From an uncultured Porphyromonadaceae bacterium (GTDB taxonomy: Bacteria; Bacteroidota; Bacteroidia; Bacteroidales; Muribaculaceae), in contig CANOLV010000028.1 in assembly GCA_947567425.1 (NCBI GenBank), positions 1-32,139 of the forward strand: a stretch of DNA of 32,139 nucleotides, in the 5' to 3' direction. The position numbers and the translations under genes were made by a program. Position 1 is the first letter of the stretch; every line of letters begins with the position of its first letter. A model generated the notes under the pieces. The model was not told the origin of the DNA. It saw only the letters and a program-made list of their open reading frames with translations, and did no database searches. Of the stretch, positions 27,491 through 32,139 are shown in pieces.

Positions 27491-27651
27491 TTTTGATGCT
27501 ACTATCTGAGCTATCGAATCTTACAGTTTAAGCAGTGTCTTGTTGCTACTTCACTTTGGTTTACAGTACGGTTTACAATCGCTATATTTGAGATGTAGTT
27601 AAACAATAGTTTTGTTCTCTCGGCAAAATATCGATGACTGTATCTGATAGG

Positions 27652-27936
27652 CTATTTGTGTCTGATGAATGTTTCTATCTCGTTGATTGATGTATTTAGG
27701 GTATCTATGTTAAGGATTATTGTATTCTTGTGAACATAGACTACCAATGAATCAGGTGTGAGTTTACGGATAGTCCAATGCTCGTTTTTAGATTCAGGTG
27801 TGTATGCGTCAGGATAGAAGCCATAAAGCACTATTGAATCTCTGTCGGTATAGTATCTGCCGGATTGTTTGTTGATATAGCCGTCTGCGCTGTATTTGTA
27901 ATGATATTTGCCGTTGGCTTCAATTTTCAGTGACAC
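27652..27936 (-). CDS. Lipocalin-like domain fragment, probably 5'-truncated
   Basis: The only usable start is a GTG at 27936. In the same frame, coding-like sequence extends upstream as YDNIAQSNLLIGEWQQPN right up to the TAG that ends the preceding gene (27991). LLIGEWQQ resembles the first strand of lipocalin-like lipoproteins, and the rest alternates as beta-strands (NGKYHYKYSADGY, DSLVVYVHKNTIILNI). No signal peptide remains. It may be a truncated gene, or the tail of a longer protein separated by a nonsense codon. Function not assignable. Confidence 0.5.
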   Translation of the reverse strand: MSLKIEANGKYHYKYSADGYINKQSGRYYTDRDSIVLYGFYPDAYTPESKNEHWTIRKLTPDSLVVYVHKNTIILNIDTLNTSINEIETFIRHK

Positions 27937-27990
27937 ATTGGGCTGTTGCCACTCTCCAATAAGAAGATTGGACTGAGCGATATTATCATA

Positions 27991-28470
27991 CTACTGCTCA
28001 GACGTGTTCGGGTATTCTTTATTCAACACTTCAGAGCGTACAAGAACAACTGATTGTCGGCATAGGGTGGGATTTATTTCGGCGATTCTCTCATCTGAAA
28101 GAGAACCATATATTACTACCGCTAGATATCTTTCGTGAGTATCATTTATAAATCTCTTGATGGCATAAAAATCATCATAAATATTAATTTCATCGTCATT
28201 AATATAAAAAGAGAATAATGAAACATGAAATGGCCTGTTTGGAAATTCATGCAAGTAAACGAACGATATCCAGGCATATTCAACTGCATAAGTTTTTCCG
28301 ATAGTCAGCGGTGGCATGTCGGGGGGGAGGCTACGGCACATAGCTATCAGCTTTCCATGTTTAGGGGTGTAAACTTCTCTGGATATCTCAGTTTTATTTG
28401 CGTTTTGCAAATCTGTGTCAGAATGTTTCTTACTGAATCCAAAAAGTTTCATAAATCCAAAAAGTCTCAT
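27991..28470 (-). CDS. Protein of unknown function (159 aa)
   Basis: The start is ATG at 28470 or ATG at 28452. The N-terminus is duplicated (MRLFGF MKLFGF) by an 18-bp tandem repeat in the DNA. No signal peptide is evident, and the rest is a mixed alpha/beta pattern (RPFHVSLFSFYINDDEINIYDDFYAIKRFI). No family recognised. The MxxFGF opening recalls the MG[LF]F openings of two genes upstream in the cluster. Its stop is followed in frame by the lipocalin-like fragment. Confidence 0.65.
   Translation of the reverse strand: MRLFGFMKLFGFSKKHSDTDLQNANKTEISREVYTPKHGKLIAMCRSLPPDMPPLTIGKTYAVEYAWISFVYLHEFPNRPFHVSLFSFYINDDEINIYDDFYAIKRFINDTHERYLAVVIYGSLSDERIAEINPTLCRQSVVLVRSEVLNKEYPNTSEQ
28439..28470 (-). 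repeat. 18-bp tandem duplication at a gene start
   Basis: CCAAAAAGTTTCAT (28439-28452) and CCAAAAAGTCTCAT (28457-28470) are spaced 18 bp apart and give two consecutive start codons six residues apart. Copy-number change here would alter the N-terminus without shifting the frame. Confidence 0.6.
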
Positions 28471-28489
28471 ATTAGAATCCTATTTTATA

Positions 28490-28570
28490 AATTATTGCAT
28501 TTGTATATTGTATATTGGGGAGCTTCGTTAAAGAACATTGCAAGTTGCATAACTCTCATTTTTTGATTGA
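28490..28570 (-). pseudogene. Decayed 3' end of the MGLF-type gene (third copy)
   Basis: The minus strand reads KMRVMQLAMFFNEAPQ in one frame, nearly identical to KMRVMQIAMFFNEALQ at the end of the gene at 29776-30078, and the DNA matches over roughly 55 bp (compare 28518-28562 with 29808-29855). The rest of the gene is missing and the frame then ends. This is a remnant of a third paralog that has been recombined with the lipoprotein start described at 28528-28647. Confidence 0.75.
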
Positions 28571-28647
28571 ACGGTGTTTATGCGTTGAGTTGAGCAAGCC
28601 GATAGGAGTATTGCCAACCCTGATAATATGATTGCTGATTTATTCAT
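28528..28647 (-). CDS. Short lipoprotein reading frame, probably truncated (39 aa)
   Basis: The frame begins with ATG at 28647, overlapping the stop of the upstream gene by 8 nt. It encodes a clean lipoprotein signal (MNKSAIILSGLAILLSAC, lipobox LSAC with Cys18) followed by only 21 residues. It then runs into the out-of-frame remnant of the MGLF-type paralog and stops. It is either a very small lipoprotein or, more likely, the 5' end of a lipoprotein gene whose body was lost by recombination. Confidence 0.5.
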   Translation of the reverse strand: MNKSAIILSGLAILLSACSTQRINTVQSKNESYATCNVL

Positions 28648-29062
28648 GTTCAGTTATTTTGTCAAAGATGTATTCTTGTCTGCCAACTGCCCCATGAGCC
28701 ATAAGTCGATATATAGAAGAAACAATGTAGTCAAGTTTATGCAACTCTCCGGCAAGTGTTGTTCGTTTTCCATTATGTGTGTCTGTTGAGTTGTGCAGAA
28801 GATGTTGCATTGCAACCGTAATAGTTTCAATATCCTTTTGGCTTGCGTCCTCACACTCGGCATTCTTTATAAGGTCAAATCTGTAAGCATCAAGGTCTGC
28901 CGATAGATTATGCAGATTGTAGCATAAGTTATCTACGGCTTGTTTAACCTGACCATGGATATTCAACGGTTCAGGTGCATTTGCTTGTTGGCACAGTTCA
29001 TAGCCAAGATTGCCAAGAGCTTTGCCGATTTCGTATAGGTATGGTCGTATCGGATTGTGCAT
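28640..29062 (-). CDS. Helical protein of unknown function (140 aa)
   Basis: ATG at 29062 (MHNPIRPYLYEIGKALGNLG) starts 2 nt after the stop of the preceding gene; a TTG six bases earlier is possible. The protein is almost wholly alpha-helical with no signal or membrane segment. The sequence has several Cys and His (CQQ, NLCYNLHNL, AECEDAS) without a recognisable metal motif. Tight packing with its neighbours indicates one operon. No family recognised. Confidence 0.65.
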   Translation of the reverse strand: MHNPIRPYLYEIGKALGNLGYELCQQANAPEPLNIHGQVKQAVDNLCYNLHNLSADLDAYRFDLIKNAECEDASQKDIETITVAMQHLLHNSTDTHNGKRTTLAGELHKLDYIVSSIYRLMAHGAVGRQEYIFDKITEHE

Positions 29063-29064
29063 AT

Positions 29065-29361
29065 TCAAAATGGTCTATTCTTTGCCATATCAACTAACAT
29101 CTCAGTATCAGCAAGTATTTGATATATGGATTTATTTGAACCCATAAACTGAAAATCAGCACATTTCACAGTATTTCCAGCAGATTCAACAATTCTTTTG
29201 ACTTCAGCAAGTTCATTAAGAATATTAGAAGCCAATATATTCGTATAATCACGGTTGTACATAGCTCTTTGCCCAACCATGAGTTCATTGAACATTGGTT
29301 CAATCTTGCGCAAATGCGAATAGATCTTGCTTATTGCATTGAAACTTCCAAAGAAACCCAT
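29065..29361 (-). CDS. Helical protein of unknown function, paralog of the first cluster gene (98 aa)
   Basis: The protein begins MGFFGSFNAISKIYSHLRKIEP and ends with DFQFMGSNKSIYQILADTEMLVDMA. It aligns over its whole length with the gene at 29776-30078: same MG[LF]F start, a K..L+.LE..F..L helix, and a C-terminal FMG..K..xQI segment. All predicted helices; no signal peptide. Start and stop lie 2 nt from its neighbours, so it is translationally packed into the operon. Function unknown. Confidence 0.7.
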   Translation of the reverse strand: MGFFGSFNAISKIYSHLRKIEPMFNELMVGQRAMYNRDYTNILASNILNELAEVKRIVESAGNTVKCADFQFMGSNKSIYQILADTEMLVDMAKNRPF

Positions 29362-29363
29362 AA

Positions 29364-29759
29364 TTATTTAATTGAATATTTTATTTCAACTTTTATATTA
29401 TCTTCAACTTCGGTATATATTAGTTTTTGAACTGTCCCATTATGTACTATTGCAGACATGGAATATTTAAGATTCCCATATTGTCCAGAGTTGTAGTAAT
29501 TATTGTTATTTGAGGGATAAAGGGTTAATTTCCGATCTCCTCTCCGAACAATGATTCTATTCGCACTCTGTTCGTAAGTCGCACTAAATAGAGGCAGTCC
29601 ACTTAAATCAGGCATTTTTATGGTTTGTCCATATTTTGTTGCGGATGCTTCAATTGGATAAAGAGTTGTAGTATTTGTCCAATTTTGAGACTTGGCAACA
29701 TTGCTGTTTATTAGGCACAACAACAATGTAATAAGGATATTACCCAATAGTTTTTTCAT
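29364..29759 (-). CDS. Secreted or periplasmic protein of unknown function (131 aa)
   Basis: A clear signal peptide (MKKLLGNILITLLLCLINSNVAKS, about 1-24) precedes a mature part rich in Asn, Thr and Tyr with beta-strand character (NRIIVRRGDRKLTLYPSNNN, DNIKVEIKYSIK). There is no lipobox Cys, so it is probably cleaved and soluble in the periplasm or exported. No family recognised. It is the only clearly exported full-length product of the cluster and starts 16 nt after the preceding stop. Confidence 0.7.
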   Translation of the reverse strand: MKKLLGNILITLLLCLINSNVAKSQNWTNTTTLYPIEASATKYGQTIKMPDLSGLPLFSATYEQSANRIIVRRGDRKLTLYPSNNNNYYNSGQYGNLKYSMSAIVHNGTVQKLIYTEVEDNIKVEIKYSIK

Positions 29760-29775
29760 ATAATGATGTATAGAG

Positions 29776-30078
29776 TTAATATCCGTTTCTACTGATTATG
29801 GCATTAGCACTTTGGAGTGCTTCGTTGAAAAACATTGCAATTTGCATGACTCGCATTTTCTGTCCCATGAATGTGTACATGGAAATTTCGGCTGTTTTGC
29901 TTTGTTCTACCGTTTCAAGAAACGTCCTGACAAGAGAAGCAGCGTCATTGCAATATGAACGTGCAGCGGAATAATTGCACATATCCATATTGGTTTGTAA
30001 TCGTCCAAACGTGTACTCCAGACGTTTGAGGGTGTCATTCGCTTTTGAAAGCGACTTATAGGCGTTAAATAATCCCAT
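29776..30078 (-). CDS. Helical protein of unknown function, first gene of the cluster (100 aa)
   Basis: I chose ATG at 30078 (MGLFNAYKSLSKANDTLKRLEY), because it matches the start of the paralog at 29065-29361; a TTG ten codons earlier is possible. The protein is all helical, probably a small coiled-coil or helical bundle, with no export signal. The C-terminal FMGQKMRVMQIAMFFNEALQSA is the segment preserved in the remnant at 28490-28570. It follows the leader hairpin at 30140-30220 by about 60 nt. Function unknown. Confidence 0.7.
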   Translation of the reverse strand: MGLFNAYKSLSKANDTLKRLEYTFGRLQTNMDMCNYSAARSYCNDAASLVRTFLETVEQSKTAEISMYTFMGQKMRVMQIAMFFNEALQSANAIISRNGY

Positions 30079-30137
30079 ATAGATACTTTGTCGCTTCTCA
30101 TCCTCCAATGAAACGGGCTATGTTATTAGACATAAAA

Positions 30138-30398
30138 AAGGTGTGAGGATTGTATCTTGTTTTATCTCATTATCAGGTCTTGGCGTACCTTAGTAGCAGA
30201 TAAAACAATAGCCCCACACCGATATTGCTATATAATCTGCCATTTACGGCAGGGTATAAGCAACCAGTGCAGGTGCTATTGCCAATCTTACCCTCGCTAC
30301 TAATTCAAACCGCCAAGTTCGATAATGGAAGATAAAATTTCAATAACACCTTTTATAAAGTTGTGTTGATTCCGTCTGCCAACTCTATGGCTCGGAAA
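30138..30398 (-). ncRNA. Candidate structured leader or small RNA upstream of the cluster
   Basis: On the minus strand, a TAGATTTG promoter element (30406-30413) is followed by three consecutive stem-loops. The first pairs 30287-30293 with 30252-30260 and has an inner GCAAT/GTTGC stem. The second is CTGCC-loop-GGCAG (30237-30252). The third is a long hairpin at 30140-30220 ending in six T. This is the architecture of an independent small RNA or an attenuating leader. I do not recognise a known family; it is not a tRNA or tmRNA. The 560 nt between 30109 and 30668 hold this RNA and the phosphatase terminator, with no convincing gene. Confidence 0.45.
30140..30220 (-). terminator. Long leader hairpin with T-run
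   Basis: Arms at 30140-30167 and 30198-30220 pair: GGTGTG with CACACC at the base and TTGTTTTATCT with AGATAAAACAA above an internal loop. On the minus strand TTTTTTATG follows. It sits between the promoter element and the first gene, so it could attenuate the whole cluster. Confidence 0.75.
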
Positions 30399-30405
30399 TC
30401 AAGTG

Positions 30406-30413
30406 CAAATCTA
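30406..30413 (-). promoter_or_regulatory. Probable promoter of the leader RNA and cluster, -7 element
   Basis: On the minus strand this is TAGATTTG, matching TAnnTTTG, preceded by eight T. No TTTG is seen at the -33 spacing, so the match is partial. Confidence 0.4.
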
Positions 30414-30551
30414 CAAAAAAAATGTCATTGTTGGGGCTATTGCGTAGAAGATATTTCACGTTTCCTGCTCTACAACATAAAGATTATAGTCTGCCCTCGT
30501 CACATTAGAAATAGTAAGTGTATGAGGGCGTTACTATGAGTCGCTATTAGA

Positions 30552-30564
30552 CGCAGTTCCAACG
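30552..30564 (+). repeat. 13-bp direct repeat, right copy
   Basis: CGCAGTTCCAACG, identical to 27400-27412 and in the same orientation. It lies just outside the leader region of the accessory cluster and before the phosphatase terminator. Confidence 0.35.
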
Positions 30565-30587
30565 AGCTGTTATAAACGTACTTATAT

Positions 30588-30632
30588 AAAAATTGAGCGC
30601 ATGGATGTCGATTTGATCCATGCGCTCAATTT
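30588..30632 (-). terminator. Intrinsic terminator of the histidine-type phosphatase
   Basis: A perfect 16-bp inverted repeat (30590-30605 and 30617-30632) is followed on the minus strand by a short T stretch. It lies 37 nt beyond the phosphatase stop. Confidence 0.85.
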
Positions 30633-30668
30633 ATGTCTATCGGTGTAGATTGCTGTCCGGAGCGGGGG

Positions 30669-31958
30669 TTAGTTCTCGGTGCCGATTTTGTTGAGGTAGT
30701 ATTCGCGGAGTTTCGGCCATGAGTAGTAGGGTCCGGCGACGGGTTCTATGGGCAGACGGCGTTCGGTCTCGTGGAGCATCACCTTGACGAGCACGTCGTC
30801 GGGATTTGTTGAGCCTTTCGGGCGGTAGAACACCATCTGTATGTTGGCGGCCATCGGGACGAGCATATAGTCGTTGATACGGCCTTCGACTTGAGAGAGG
30901 TCGTTTATCTCCTGGCCGAAGTCGTCGAGTTCCATCAGTACTGACAGAGGATAGACCATCGTGTCGTGTCCAAACCTGAGGTTGGCGCTTGTGCGGGGTG
31001 ACACCATGGCCGTGTCTGCGCTCTCGATGAAGTTGCGCAGCAGGAACCGCTGTTCCATAGGCTGTGTGCCTCCGGTCAGGGCGGAGTTGCCGGCATCGAC
31101 AAACCAGTTGAGATTGCGCTTCATCCATTCGGTATGAAGTTCATCGGGCGAGAACACTTTATCGAGCAACCACGGCTGGTCGGAGTGGCTTTGGGCGTTT
31201 CCGAGCACATTGGCCAGATCGGCTGCAAGTGCAGTGACATTGATGCTGTCTTTGGCAAACTGCGGATCGGAAATCAGTTTTGACATGAATTTCCCGCTGG
31301 TTTTGTATTTTGCGCGTTCCTCTTTCAGCGCGCCTGATTTGGCTTTTTTCCTCCAGTCGCGGGTGATCGAGTCGTGGTCATGGTTCATGTAGTACATGTC
31401 GGCATAGCTCGCGTCGGTGGTTATGAGCAACTGCGGTTCGAGAGCCTGCAGCTCCTTGATCTCGTTGAGCATCGACAGGATGCATCGTATCACAATGGTG
31501 GACTTTGCATCGACATGAGTGCCGGGCTGGAATATCTGGGGATAGTTTTCATACATGCGTCTGCCGATGGCCTGATGCTGCCAGGCTCCGATGTCCGATA
31601 GTTCACCCAGGCGGTTCTTGCTTTTGTTCTGAATATCCCTGACAGTGTTCAGTATTTCCTGTCCGAAGGGGGTGAGTTTGCCGGCTTTTTCTGCTTTTGA
31701 GAGTTCATTGACCGGAGTGGCGTATTGGTTTGGATTTATGAGCCAGCGCGATCCATGTCGGCCGTAGTGCTCGATATGGAATGGCTCATATCCTTCGGGA
31801 GCCGGTGTCTGTGCGGGTGGAGCCACGTCCAGATAAGGATAGGCGTAGTAGTGGCTTGCTGTCTGCTGAGGAGTAGGGGAGGCGGATTGTTGTGCAAATG
31901 CCGATGCTATCCCCATGGTCAGGATGGCAAGAGCGGATGCTGCTTTTCTGTAGTTCAT
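30669..31958 (-). CDS. Histidine-type phosphatase (histidine acid phosphatase / MINPP-like)
   Basis: A signal peptide (MNYRKAASALAILTMGIASAFAQ) exports the protein to the periplasm or beyond. The catalytic signature HYGRHGSRW (64-72) contains the nucleophile His68. The phosphate-binding STIVIRCILSM segment is at 153-163, and the acid motif is HD at 331-332 (RFGHDTMVYP). Length (429 aa) and layout resemble Bacteroides inositol-polyphosphate phosphatases (MINPP-like phytases), which release phosphate from phytate; whether phytate is the substrate here is inference. It is monocistronic, with its own promoter-like element and terminator. Confidence 0.88.
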   Translation of the reverse strand: MNYRKAASALAILTMGIASAFAQQSASPTPQQTASHYYAYPYLDVAPPAQTPAPEGYEPFHIEHYGRHGSRWLINPNQYATPVNELSKAEKAGKLTPFGQEILNTVRDIQNKSKNRLGELSDIGAWQHQAIGRRMYENYPQIFQPGTHVDAKSTIVIRCILSMLNEIKELQALEPQLLITTDASYADMYYMNHDHDSITRDWRKKAKSGALKEERAKYKTSGKFMSKLISDPQFAKDSINVTALAADLANVLGNAQSHSDQPWLLDKVFSPDELHTEWMKRNLNWFVDAGNSALTGGTQPMEQRFLLRNFIESADTAMVSPRTSANLRFGHDTMVYPLSVLMELDDFGQEINDLSQVEGRINDYMLVPMAANIQMVFYRPKGSTNPDDVLVKVMLHETERRLPIEPVAGPYYSWPKLREYYLNKIGTEN

Positions 31959-32074: not shown

Positions 32075-32139
32075 TGGTGGGCGTTGAGGGATTCGAACCC
32101 CCGACCCTCTGCTTGTAAGGCAGATGCTCTGAACCAGCT
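32075..32139 (-). tRNA. tRNA-Val (anticodon UAC), 5' end beyond the window
   Basis: The minus strand shows most of the D arm (AGCTGGTTCAGAGC), an anticodon stem TCTGC/GCAGA around the loop CTTACAA (anticodon TAC), a T arm with GTTCGAAT, the acceptor 3' strand and an encoded CCA (32077-32075). About 10-13 nt of the 5' acceptor strand fall outside the window. It decodes GUA/GUG valine codons. Confidence 0.92.

What the first reader, a model, noticed from the sequence alone, without database searches (positions are those of the whole stretch)
27652..30414. Compact minus-strand cluster of unassigned small genes behind a structured leader RNA
Seven tightly packed small frames (gaps of 2-20 nt in the first half) follow a promoter-like element, three stem-loops and a terminator. 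None matches a family I know. Two are paralogous helical proteins, one is secreted, one has a lipoprotein signal. A recurring set of cytosolic helical proteins with an exported partner under a shared attenuator would suggest a self-contained, undescribed system (for example competition, immunity or regulation). The function is pure inference.
Basis: partly seen in the sequence, partly recalled or inferred. Interest (0 to 1): 0.72.

Follow-up and report, generated by a model that had tools for sequence, protein, structure and literature searches.

The report
New leader RNA before exported-protein genes
In front of this cluster of small genes lies one copy of an apparently undescribed folded leader RNA that recurs, beside different and mostly exported or membrane proteins, across bacteria of the phylum Bacteroidota, and it looks like a shared on/off switch for those genes.

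Summary
The gene cluster is real but is variable cargo; the conserved thing is the RNA in front of it. A 221-nt element (30354-30134, minus strand) has its own promoter, a 5' hairpin, two look-alike hairpins whose loops pair with each other, and a terminator (second hairpin plus U-run). Another hairpin past the terminator pairs back onto the terminator strand. Covariation supports the main helices, also in sequences not used for the model. No Rfam 15 match. The element is in 138 of 247 Muribaculaceae genomes (1-8 copies as scored); a related shorter class is in 98 of 247 Bacteroidales and 36 of 296 Bacteroidota genomes. A frame starts a median 55 nt after the U-run with no promoter box between; 96 of 131 first genes carry an export or membrane signal by a rough rule (101 of 407 background frames). 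Two conserved pairings need the same four bases, so they exclude each other: the mark of a switch. Conclusion: a new superfamily of cis-acting attenuator leaders for envelope and secreted proteins; signal unknown, no expression data. The window's genes are a reshuffled set of rare families; the lipoprotein gene is split.

The parts
30417..30441 (-). Conserved promoter block in place of the usual -33 box (subgroup of the family); complementary to segments 3 and 1 of the RNA
   Evidence: Block with at least 12 of 19 matches, starting 24-29 nt upstream of the -7 box, in 46 of 118 class-1 loci; only match in own genome at up to 3 mismatches; own versus swapped pairing with the RNA 15.78 vs 14.74, sd 0.23, max 15.27, 112 loci. 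Role not explained
30406..30413 (-). -7 promoter element TAnnTTTG (Bacteroidota type; motif recalled, two-element promoter mentioned in PMC7366714 passages); transcription start inferred near 30399
   Evidence: Found 35-115 nt upstream of the element in 121 of 137 loci, in 4 of 128 control windows
30378..30391 (-). 5' hairpin with AGAG loop (candidate protein-binding site)
   Evidence: Perfect AGAG tetraloop hairpin of 3 or more pairs in 54 of 121 loci, 1.25 on average in shuffles, at most 5; the window copy has a mismatch next to the loop and is not among the 54
30272..30350 (-). Hairpin H1: segment 1 (30350-30341) with segment 2 (30281-30272), inner stem, large loop
   Evidence: 98.7% and 97.4% of cells paired in 80 further sequences, on an alignment that leans to the model; 98.6% and 98.1% in A1
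30296..30327 (-). Loop of H1, 5' strand of loop-loop helix K (partner in the loop of H2)
   Evidence: K is not in the search model; 92.9% paired vs 61.0% shuffled, 18 of 19 pairs with changes on both sides
30221..30271 (-). Middle hairpin MH
   Evidence: Weaker: 64.0, 86.3, 73.1 and 95.1% of cells paired in its four helices
30140..30220 (-). Hairpin H2, the terminator stem: segment 3 (30220-30212) with segment 4 (30148-30140), inner stem, loop with 3' strand of K
   Evidence: Helices 3-5: 97.1-99.2% paired, 16 of 20 pairs with changes on both sides
30134..30139 (-). U-run of the intrinsic terminator
   Evidence: At least 5 T in 7 nt in 132 of 137 class-1 and, in 8 nt, 42 of 43 class-2 loci
30093..30114 (-). 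Post-terminator hairpin P3; loop with GAGGAU pairs with segment 4 (AUCCUC in the window, CAAUCCUC in many copies)
   Evidence: Own versus swapped partners 16.65 vs 13.75, sd 0.26, max of 300 swaps 14.41, 80 loci; hairpin score 12 or more in 111 of 136, 31% of shuffles
29776..30078 (-). p1, helical protein, 100 aa
   Evidence: No family; homologues in L036, L037, L074
29364..29759 (-). p2, protein with signal peptide (by eye), 131 aa
   Evidence: Homologue in L036 (63% identity)
29065..29361 (-). p3, helical protein, 98 aa, paralogue of p1
   Evidence: BLASTP E 5e-6 to p1; L036, L037
28640..29062 (-). p4, helical protein, 140 aa
   Evidence: Homologues in L140, L038, L061 and, in part, L036
28528..28647 (-). 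N-terminal end of a split lipoprotein gene (39 codons to a stop), running into DNA that resembles p1
   Evidence: p1-like stretch 28515-28601, 59% identity, one stop
27991..28470 (-). p5, 159 aa, no family
   Evidence: Homologues in L053, L043, L041
27652..27989 (-). C-terminal end of the split lipoprotein gene
   Evidence: 84.5% identity to L140, where the gene is one frame; relatives in L036, L037, L038, L043, L061, L138, L142, L163

Best explanation
The element is a cis-acting leader RNA, a transcription attenuator that is transcribed from its own promoter and decides whether the operon behind it is made. Shown by sequence: promoter box, 5' hairpin, H1, MH, H2 with U-run, loop-loop helix K, and P3 downstream; open frame about 55 nt after the U-run with no promoter box between; first genes mostly with export or membrane signals. 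Inferred: in the OFF state segment 3 pairs with segment 4 (H2) and the U-run ends transcription, leaving an RNA of about 270 nt. In the ON state segment 4 is withheld from segment 3, RNA polymerase passes, and the loop of P3 captures the CAAUCCUC part of segment 4, which keeps the leader open. H2 and P3 need the same CCUC bases, so they exclude each other, and selection has kept both. Helix K sets the two hairpins against each other; the AGAG hairpin at the 5' end is the likely place where a trans-acting factor is read. The signal is not known. The small genes of the window are interchangeable cargo of one such leader.
For: Structure: 93.0% of 3420 cells paired vs 81.4% shuffled and 40-51% slid, 49 of 71 pairs with changes on both sides (50 sequences). 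Further set: K 92.9% vs 61.0%, H1/H2 98.1% vs 93.3% (80 sequences). P3-terminator pairing: own vs swapped in 51 loci (16.68 vs 14.08, sd 0.34, max 15.02), 80 loci (16.65 vs 13.75, sd 0.26, max 14.41) and 43 class-2 loci (15.09 vs 12.94, sd 0.36, max 14.08). Promoter box 121 of 137 vs 4 of 128. Open frame of 100 aa or more starting 15-150 nt downstream on the same strand in 103 of 130, divergent upstream in 8 of 128. TAnnTTTG between U-run and +45 in 0 of 137. U-run 132 of 137. Export or membrane signal (own rough rule) 96 of 131 first genes vs 101 of 407 background frames.
Against: No transcript data: start site, termination and read-through are inferred. The alternative rod (segments 1:4 and 2:3), which energy models prefer in 60 of 80, is conserved but gains little over shuffles, so which state is the antiterminated one is not settled, nor whether K coexists with H1 and H2. 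For K one of five measures (further pair types) does not exceed shuffles (116 of 500). In class 2 the outer H1 and H2 helices are less regular (75.3% and 84.0%) and the promoter box was seen in 28 of 43. No regulator or ligand identified; a search for NusG in the window's genome found no match at all and says nothing.
Confidence: 0.7

Rival explanations
1. The RNA is a free-standing small RNA (6S-like or trans-acting) that ends at the U-run; the downstream gene is a neighbour only.
For: Own promoter box and strong terminator; rod-like fold as in 6S RNA. Five class-2 copies outside the order lie 225-377 nt before the gene.
Against: Median distance of 55 nt (quartiles 51-63) to a same-strand frame, no promoter box in between, covarying pairing with a hairpin beyond the terminator, several copies beside different genes, no match to Rfam.
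Confidence: 0.12
2. The leader controls translation or mRNA stability rather than termination: P3 with its GGAGG-like loop is opened or closed by segment 4 shortly before the start codon.
For: P3 sits between U-run and ATG and pairs with segment 4; the loop often looks like a Shine-Dalgarno sequence (85 of the 111 strong hairpins have GG[AG][TG]).
Against: The U-run is almost invariant (132 of 137), which translation control alone would not need; many loops change away from GGAGG together with segment 4.
Confidence: 0.25
3. The element is a mobile or recombination site (MITE or attC-like) and the folding is of DNA.
For: Several copies per genome next to different genes; two contigs of G036 start inside a copy.
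Against: Promoter box upstream and frame downstream on one strand; G-U pairs are frequent in the helices, as in RNA; no recombinase among the 25 commonest Pfam families of the first genes (71 families in all). Terminal repeats and target duplications were not tested.
Confidence: 0.08
4. The window's genes form a dedicated competition or immunity system with the leader as its private control.
For: Five of the window's families recur together in L036; small helical and exported proteins.
Against: The leader is shared with leucine-rich-repeat proteins, lipoproteins, TerB-like proteins and many others; six PADLOC families are matched by one or two of 131 first genes each (best a caspase model, E 8.8e-10); one member is split in the window.
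Confidence: 0.1

Closest known systems
Transcription attenuators and terminator-type riboswitches in general (trp-type leaders, T-box, metabolite riboswitches; recalled)
   Same: Leader RNA with own promoter, intrinsic terminator, mutually exclusive pairings shortly before the first gene
   Different: Two look-alike hairpins joined by a long loop-loop helix; a hairpin beyond the terminator that pairs back onto it; first genes share export rather than a pathway; no Rfam match
c-di-GMP (GEMM) riboswitches (recalled, not tested beyond Rfam)
   Same: Works alike in one respect: one RNA class in front of many unrelated surface and secreted proteins
   Different: No Rfam match to the element
6S RNA of Bacteroidota, Bacteroidales-1 and Flavo-1 (names from passages of PMC2864571 and PMC9723704)
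   Same: RNAs of the same phylum; 6S is rod-like (recalled)
   Different: No Rfam match at the element; several copies per genome; placed as mRNA leader
LoaP/UpxY-type antitermination leaders (recalled; papers seen in the search listing only)
   Same: A small hairpin near the 5' end of the transcript that could recruit a factor
   Different: No NusG paralogue shown; the search was uninformative

Membership tests
Any described Rfam 15 family | Covariance-model match at the element | tested here: not met
   cmscan of the window at gathering threshold and of 27500-30700 by E-value, of 6 loci and of 20 class-2 loci: no match at the element
Cis-acting leader RNA / attenuator | Same-strand gene at short fixed distance | tested here: met
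   Class 1: 103 of 130 vs 8 of 128 divergent, 15-150 nt; class 2: 32 of 43 vs 8 of 37, 15-200 nt
Cis-acting leader RNA / attenuator | Intrinsic terminator between promoter and gene | tested here: met
   H2 with covariation, U-run 132 of 137, promoter box 121 of 137; by sequence only
Cis-acting leader RNA / attenuator | Mutually exclusive pairings, both conserved | tested here: met
   H2 and P3 share the CCUC bases of segment 4; both covary
Cis-acting leader RNA / attenuator | Regulated read-through in the cell | not testable with these tools
   Needs RNA data
Metabolite riboswitch | Ligand and coherent pathway of genes | tested here: inconclusive
   First genes share export, not a pathway; ligand not testable
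6S RNA | Match to 6S families; no link to a downstream gene | tested here: not met
Transposon-borne or integron site | Terminal repeats, target duplication, recombinase | not tested
   Only indirect evidence

The most novel reading that the evidence does not exclude
A phylum-wide, previously unrecorded RNA switch of Bacteroidota, in two or more classes, with a duplicated-hairpin plus loop-loop architecture and a post-terminator lock, that places dozens of unrelated envelope and secreted proteins (leucine-rich-repeat proteins, lipoproteins, SusC-type receptors, small helical proteins) under one unknown signal; the RNA may also contact its own promoter DNA, to which it is complementary.
Probability: 0.45. 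Interest if true: 0.93.

Novelty: new variant of a known kind. Interest (0 to 1): 0.85.

Why it matters
Bacteroidota are among the main bacteria of the gut, and few RNA switches are known in them (recalled). A leader with up to 11 or more copies per genome (class 2, where the scoring limit was reached), in front of exported proteins, would be one of the wider post-initiation regulators of the phylum, would tell which surface genes are co-regulated, and gives a directly testable question: what does it sense? It also explains a cluster of orphan small genes as cargo of a common control element.

Tried and rejected
Three separate stem-loops: rejected, the RNA folds as one element and covariation supports H1, H2 and K, MH less. 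A simple rod: energy models prefer it, but the pairs that only the rod has gain little over shuffles (93.3 vs 92.8% paired, score 0.106 vs 0.096; 90.7 vs 89.2%, 0.224 vs 0.196), whereas H1 and H2 do. Known RNA: no Rfam match. Phage or plasmid origin: no match of the element in phages or plasmids by blastn, none exact for a 23-base stretch in viral contigs; p1 not in plasmids; proteins with no PHROG match better than E 0.007. Defence system: six PADLOC families, one or two of 131 first genes each. NusG-type antiterminator: no match in the own genome, uninformative. Solved structures: best E 0.064 for the p1/p3 profile, 0.002 (a designed coiled coil by its name) for p4. Papers: searches (listings); passages of PMC2864571, PMC9723704, PMC10994844 and PMC7366714 and a term search without hits in PMC11109978 named no such element; supplements were not open to me, and PMC9723704 mentions a table of 64 structured leaders that I did not see.

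Rows dropped: BLAST matches spanning less than 140 query bases were left out of the first alignment (51 kept), then L066 too (50 in A1). Of 100 further places chosen were fetched; one batch of 20 was not. L164 repeats the locus L036 under another handle, so it is in A1 and A2; other rows of A2 are related to rows of A1. Of 143 first frames 131 went to the family search (12 short or doubtful ones left out by hand). Of 20 class-2 loci 17 went into A8 (two long ones and one near-copy left out). Of the 45 class-2 rows two identical ones were dropped, and about 15 of the remaining 43 were in the alignment that built R2 (P3 is not in that model). Copy counts are limited by the number of candidates scored (9 and 11). 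In the export test first genes were 60 aa or more, background frames 100 aa or more; second same-strand frames gave 39 of 77.
Full report
1. What is there. The minus strand from 30441 to 27652 carries a promoter, a structured leader and five intact small genes plus one split lipoprotein gene. The window is contig C28 of a 2.9-Mb assembly; that it is a Muribaculaceae genome I infer from the titles of the two named relatives. The six proteins have no match above cut-off in Pfam or NCBIfam and none better than E 0.007 in PHROGs. p1 and p3 are paralogues (E 5e-6). Frames 28647-28528 and 27989-27652 are the two ends of one lipoprotein gene, parted by p1-like DNA and by p5; L140 has the gene as one frame.

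2. The leader. The RNA 30402-30130 folds at -102.4 kcal/mol (z -8.6; 0 of 200 shuffles). BLAST found related DNA in 35 of 99 genomes, the window's own counted, at 66 places, some of them short. Rfam 15 has no match.

3. Structure by covariation. In 50 aligned copies (A1), a structure with H1, MH, H2 and loop-loop helix K has 93.0% of cells paired (shuffled 81.4%, slid 40-51%) and 49 of 71 pairs with changes on both sides. A model (R1) built without K found the element in all 80 further loci fetched for it. In these K, unknown to the model, is 92.9% paired against 61.0% in shuffles, with a covariation score of 0.761 against 0.183; only the count of further pair types is not above shuffles. H1 and H2 are 98.1% against 93.3%, but here the alignment leans to the model. 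The middle hairpin is weaker. Pairs specific to a plain rod are conserved but barely covary, though energy models favour the rod in 60 of 80. So K, H1 and H2 are all under selection; whether all three exist at once or K and the hairpins alternate is open.

4. Beyond the terminator. After the U-run (132 of 137) comes a hairpin, most often GUUUC...GAAAC (score 12 or more in 111 of 136, 31% of shuffles), whose loop pairs with the 3' strand of the terminator stem. The pairing is specific to each copy: own pairs score 16.68 against 14.08 (sd 0.34, max 15.02) for swapped pairs in 51 loci, 16.65 against 13.75 (sd 0.26, max 14.41) in 80 loci. It uses up to CAAUCCUC, while H2 uses CCUCACACC; the shared CCUC makes the two exclusive.

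5. Upstream. A -7 element TAnnTTTG lies 35-115 nt before the element in 121 of 137 loci, in 4 of 128 control windows. Between it and the element is often a hairpin with an AGAG tetraloop on a varying stem: 54 of 121 by a strict test, 1.25 expected; the window's copy has a mismatch and is not counted. In 46 of 118 loci the -33 region carries a block of about 19 bases at a nearly fixed place, which is complementary to segments 3 and 1 of the RNA and tends to change with them (15.78 vs 14.74 swapped, sd 0.23, max 15.27; 112 loci); relatedness of the loci may account for part of this. In the own genome the block occurs only here. Its role is not explained.

6. It is a leader. A frame of 100 aa or more starts 15-150 nt downstream on the same strand in 103 of 130 loci, divergently upstream in 8 of 128; in the 124 of 137 loci with a frame of 60 aa or more within 260 nt the median start is 55 nt, quartiles 51-63. 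TAnnTTTG lies between U-run and +45 in 0 of 137 loci. Of 131 first genes (112 class 1, 19 class 2) 21 have BspA-type leucine-rich repeats, 7 TerB, 6 Big_2, 5 a secretion-system C-terminal sorting domain. By a rough rule of my own 96 of 131 have an export or membrane signal, against 101 of 407 other frames and 39 of 77 second frames.

7. Spread. R1 matches 138 of 247 genomes of the family, 26 of 30 genera, 1-8 copies as scored, and 47 of 294 in the order; 9 genomes outside the family have matches of 95 bits or more. Many of the weaker matches there are shorter (163-178 nt) and proved to be a second class: same order of parts, AAAGCGUU / AACGCUC / GGCGUGGG / CCCACGCUUUUUU, with the K core paired in all 119 cells of 17 sequences, the outer H1 and H2 helices in 75.3% and 84.0%. 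A model of class 2 (R2) matches 98 of 247 genomes of the order, 13 of them at the limit of 11 scored candidates, and 36 of 296 genomes of the phylum; it also finds the window's element (E 1.1e-7), which supports kinship of the classes. Class 2 shows the same downstream frame (32 of 43 vs 8 of 37 divergent, 15-200 nt) and the same terminator-P3 pairing (15.09 vs 12.94, sd 0.36, max 14.08), with the promoter box in 28 of 43. Five copies outside the order lie 225-377 nt before genes with a TonB-receptor plug domain and show no usual P3 hairpin by eye. The own genome has a second class-1 copy on C19 and a class-2 copy on C51, the latter before a frame that looks Crp/Fnr-like by eye.

8. The gene cluster. 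p1, p2, p3, a p4-like frame and the lipoprotein recur together in L036; parts of the set recur in L037, L038, L041, L043, L053, L061, L138, L140, L142, L163. Nearly all these loci were fetched because they carry the leader, so co-occurrence with the leader is biased; the unbiased search for p1 gave 3 of 99 genomes, the own one included, and 2 loci of the named collection, both with a leader or a piece of one. One distant p1-like gene, in L074, has no leader match in the 314 bases before it. The cluster is best read as a reshuffled operon of rare families behind one leader.

9. Mechanism and limits. The best reading is an attenuator switch (see Best explanation). Shown: parts, their order, covariation, exclusivity of H2 and P3, position. 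Inferred: termination, read-through, the ON state, a factor at the AGAG hairpin. Not known: the signal. Rivals are translation control by P3, a free small RNA and a DNA element.

10. Novelty. A leader attenuator is a known kind; this family, its architecture and its regulon matched no Rfam family and were named in none of the papers I could search or read in passages, which cover open-access text only. Hence 'new variant of a known kind', high interest.

Noticed in passing
window 30417-30441: Promoter block complementary to segments 3 and 1 of its own RNA, at a nearly fixed place in 46 of 118 loci; could be an operator, a longer transcript or an RNA-DNA contact.
   Followed up: partly
window 28647-27652: A lipoprotein gene is split by p1-like DNA and the p5 gene; one frame in L140.
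   Followed up: partly
L267, L268, L269, L272, L274: Class-2 copies 225-377 nt before genes with a TonB-receptor plug domain (SusC-like), with two -7 boxes in all five and no usual P3 hairpin by eye.
   Followed up: partly
L037/L075 and L061, first 85 bases: Two contigs of one genome (G036 C62 and C58) both begin inside a leader copy, as if assembly broke at the repeat.
   Followed up: no
L038, L043, L036 upstream of the leader: A frame that looks like a RadC/JAB protein (by eye) precedes the leader in these loci, perhaps a mobile-element setting.
   Followed up: no
L235:208-283 and L235:2698-2732: A group II intron match (above its cut-off) and a DUF805b match just below its cut-off (35.2 vs 35.6 bits) flank a class-2 copy.
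   Followed up: no
window 32078-32139: A tRNA is cut by the contig end.
   Followed up: no
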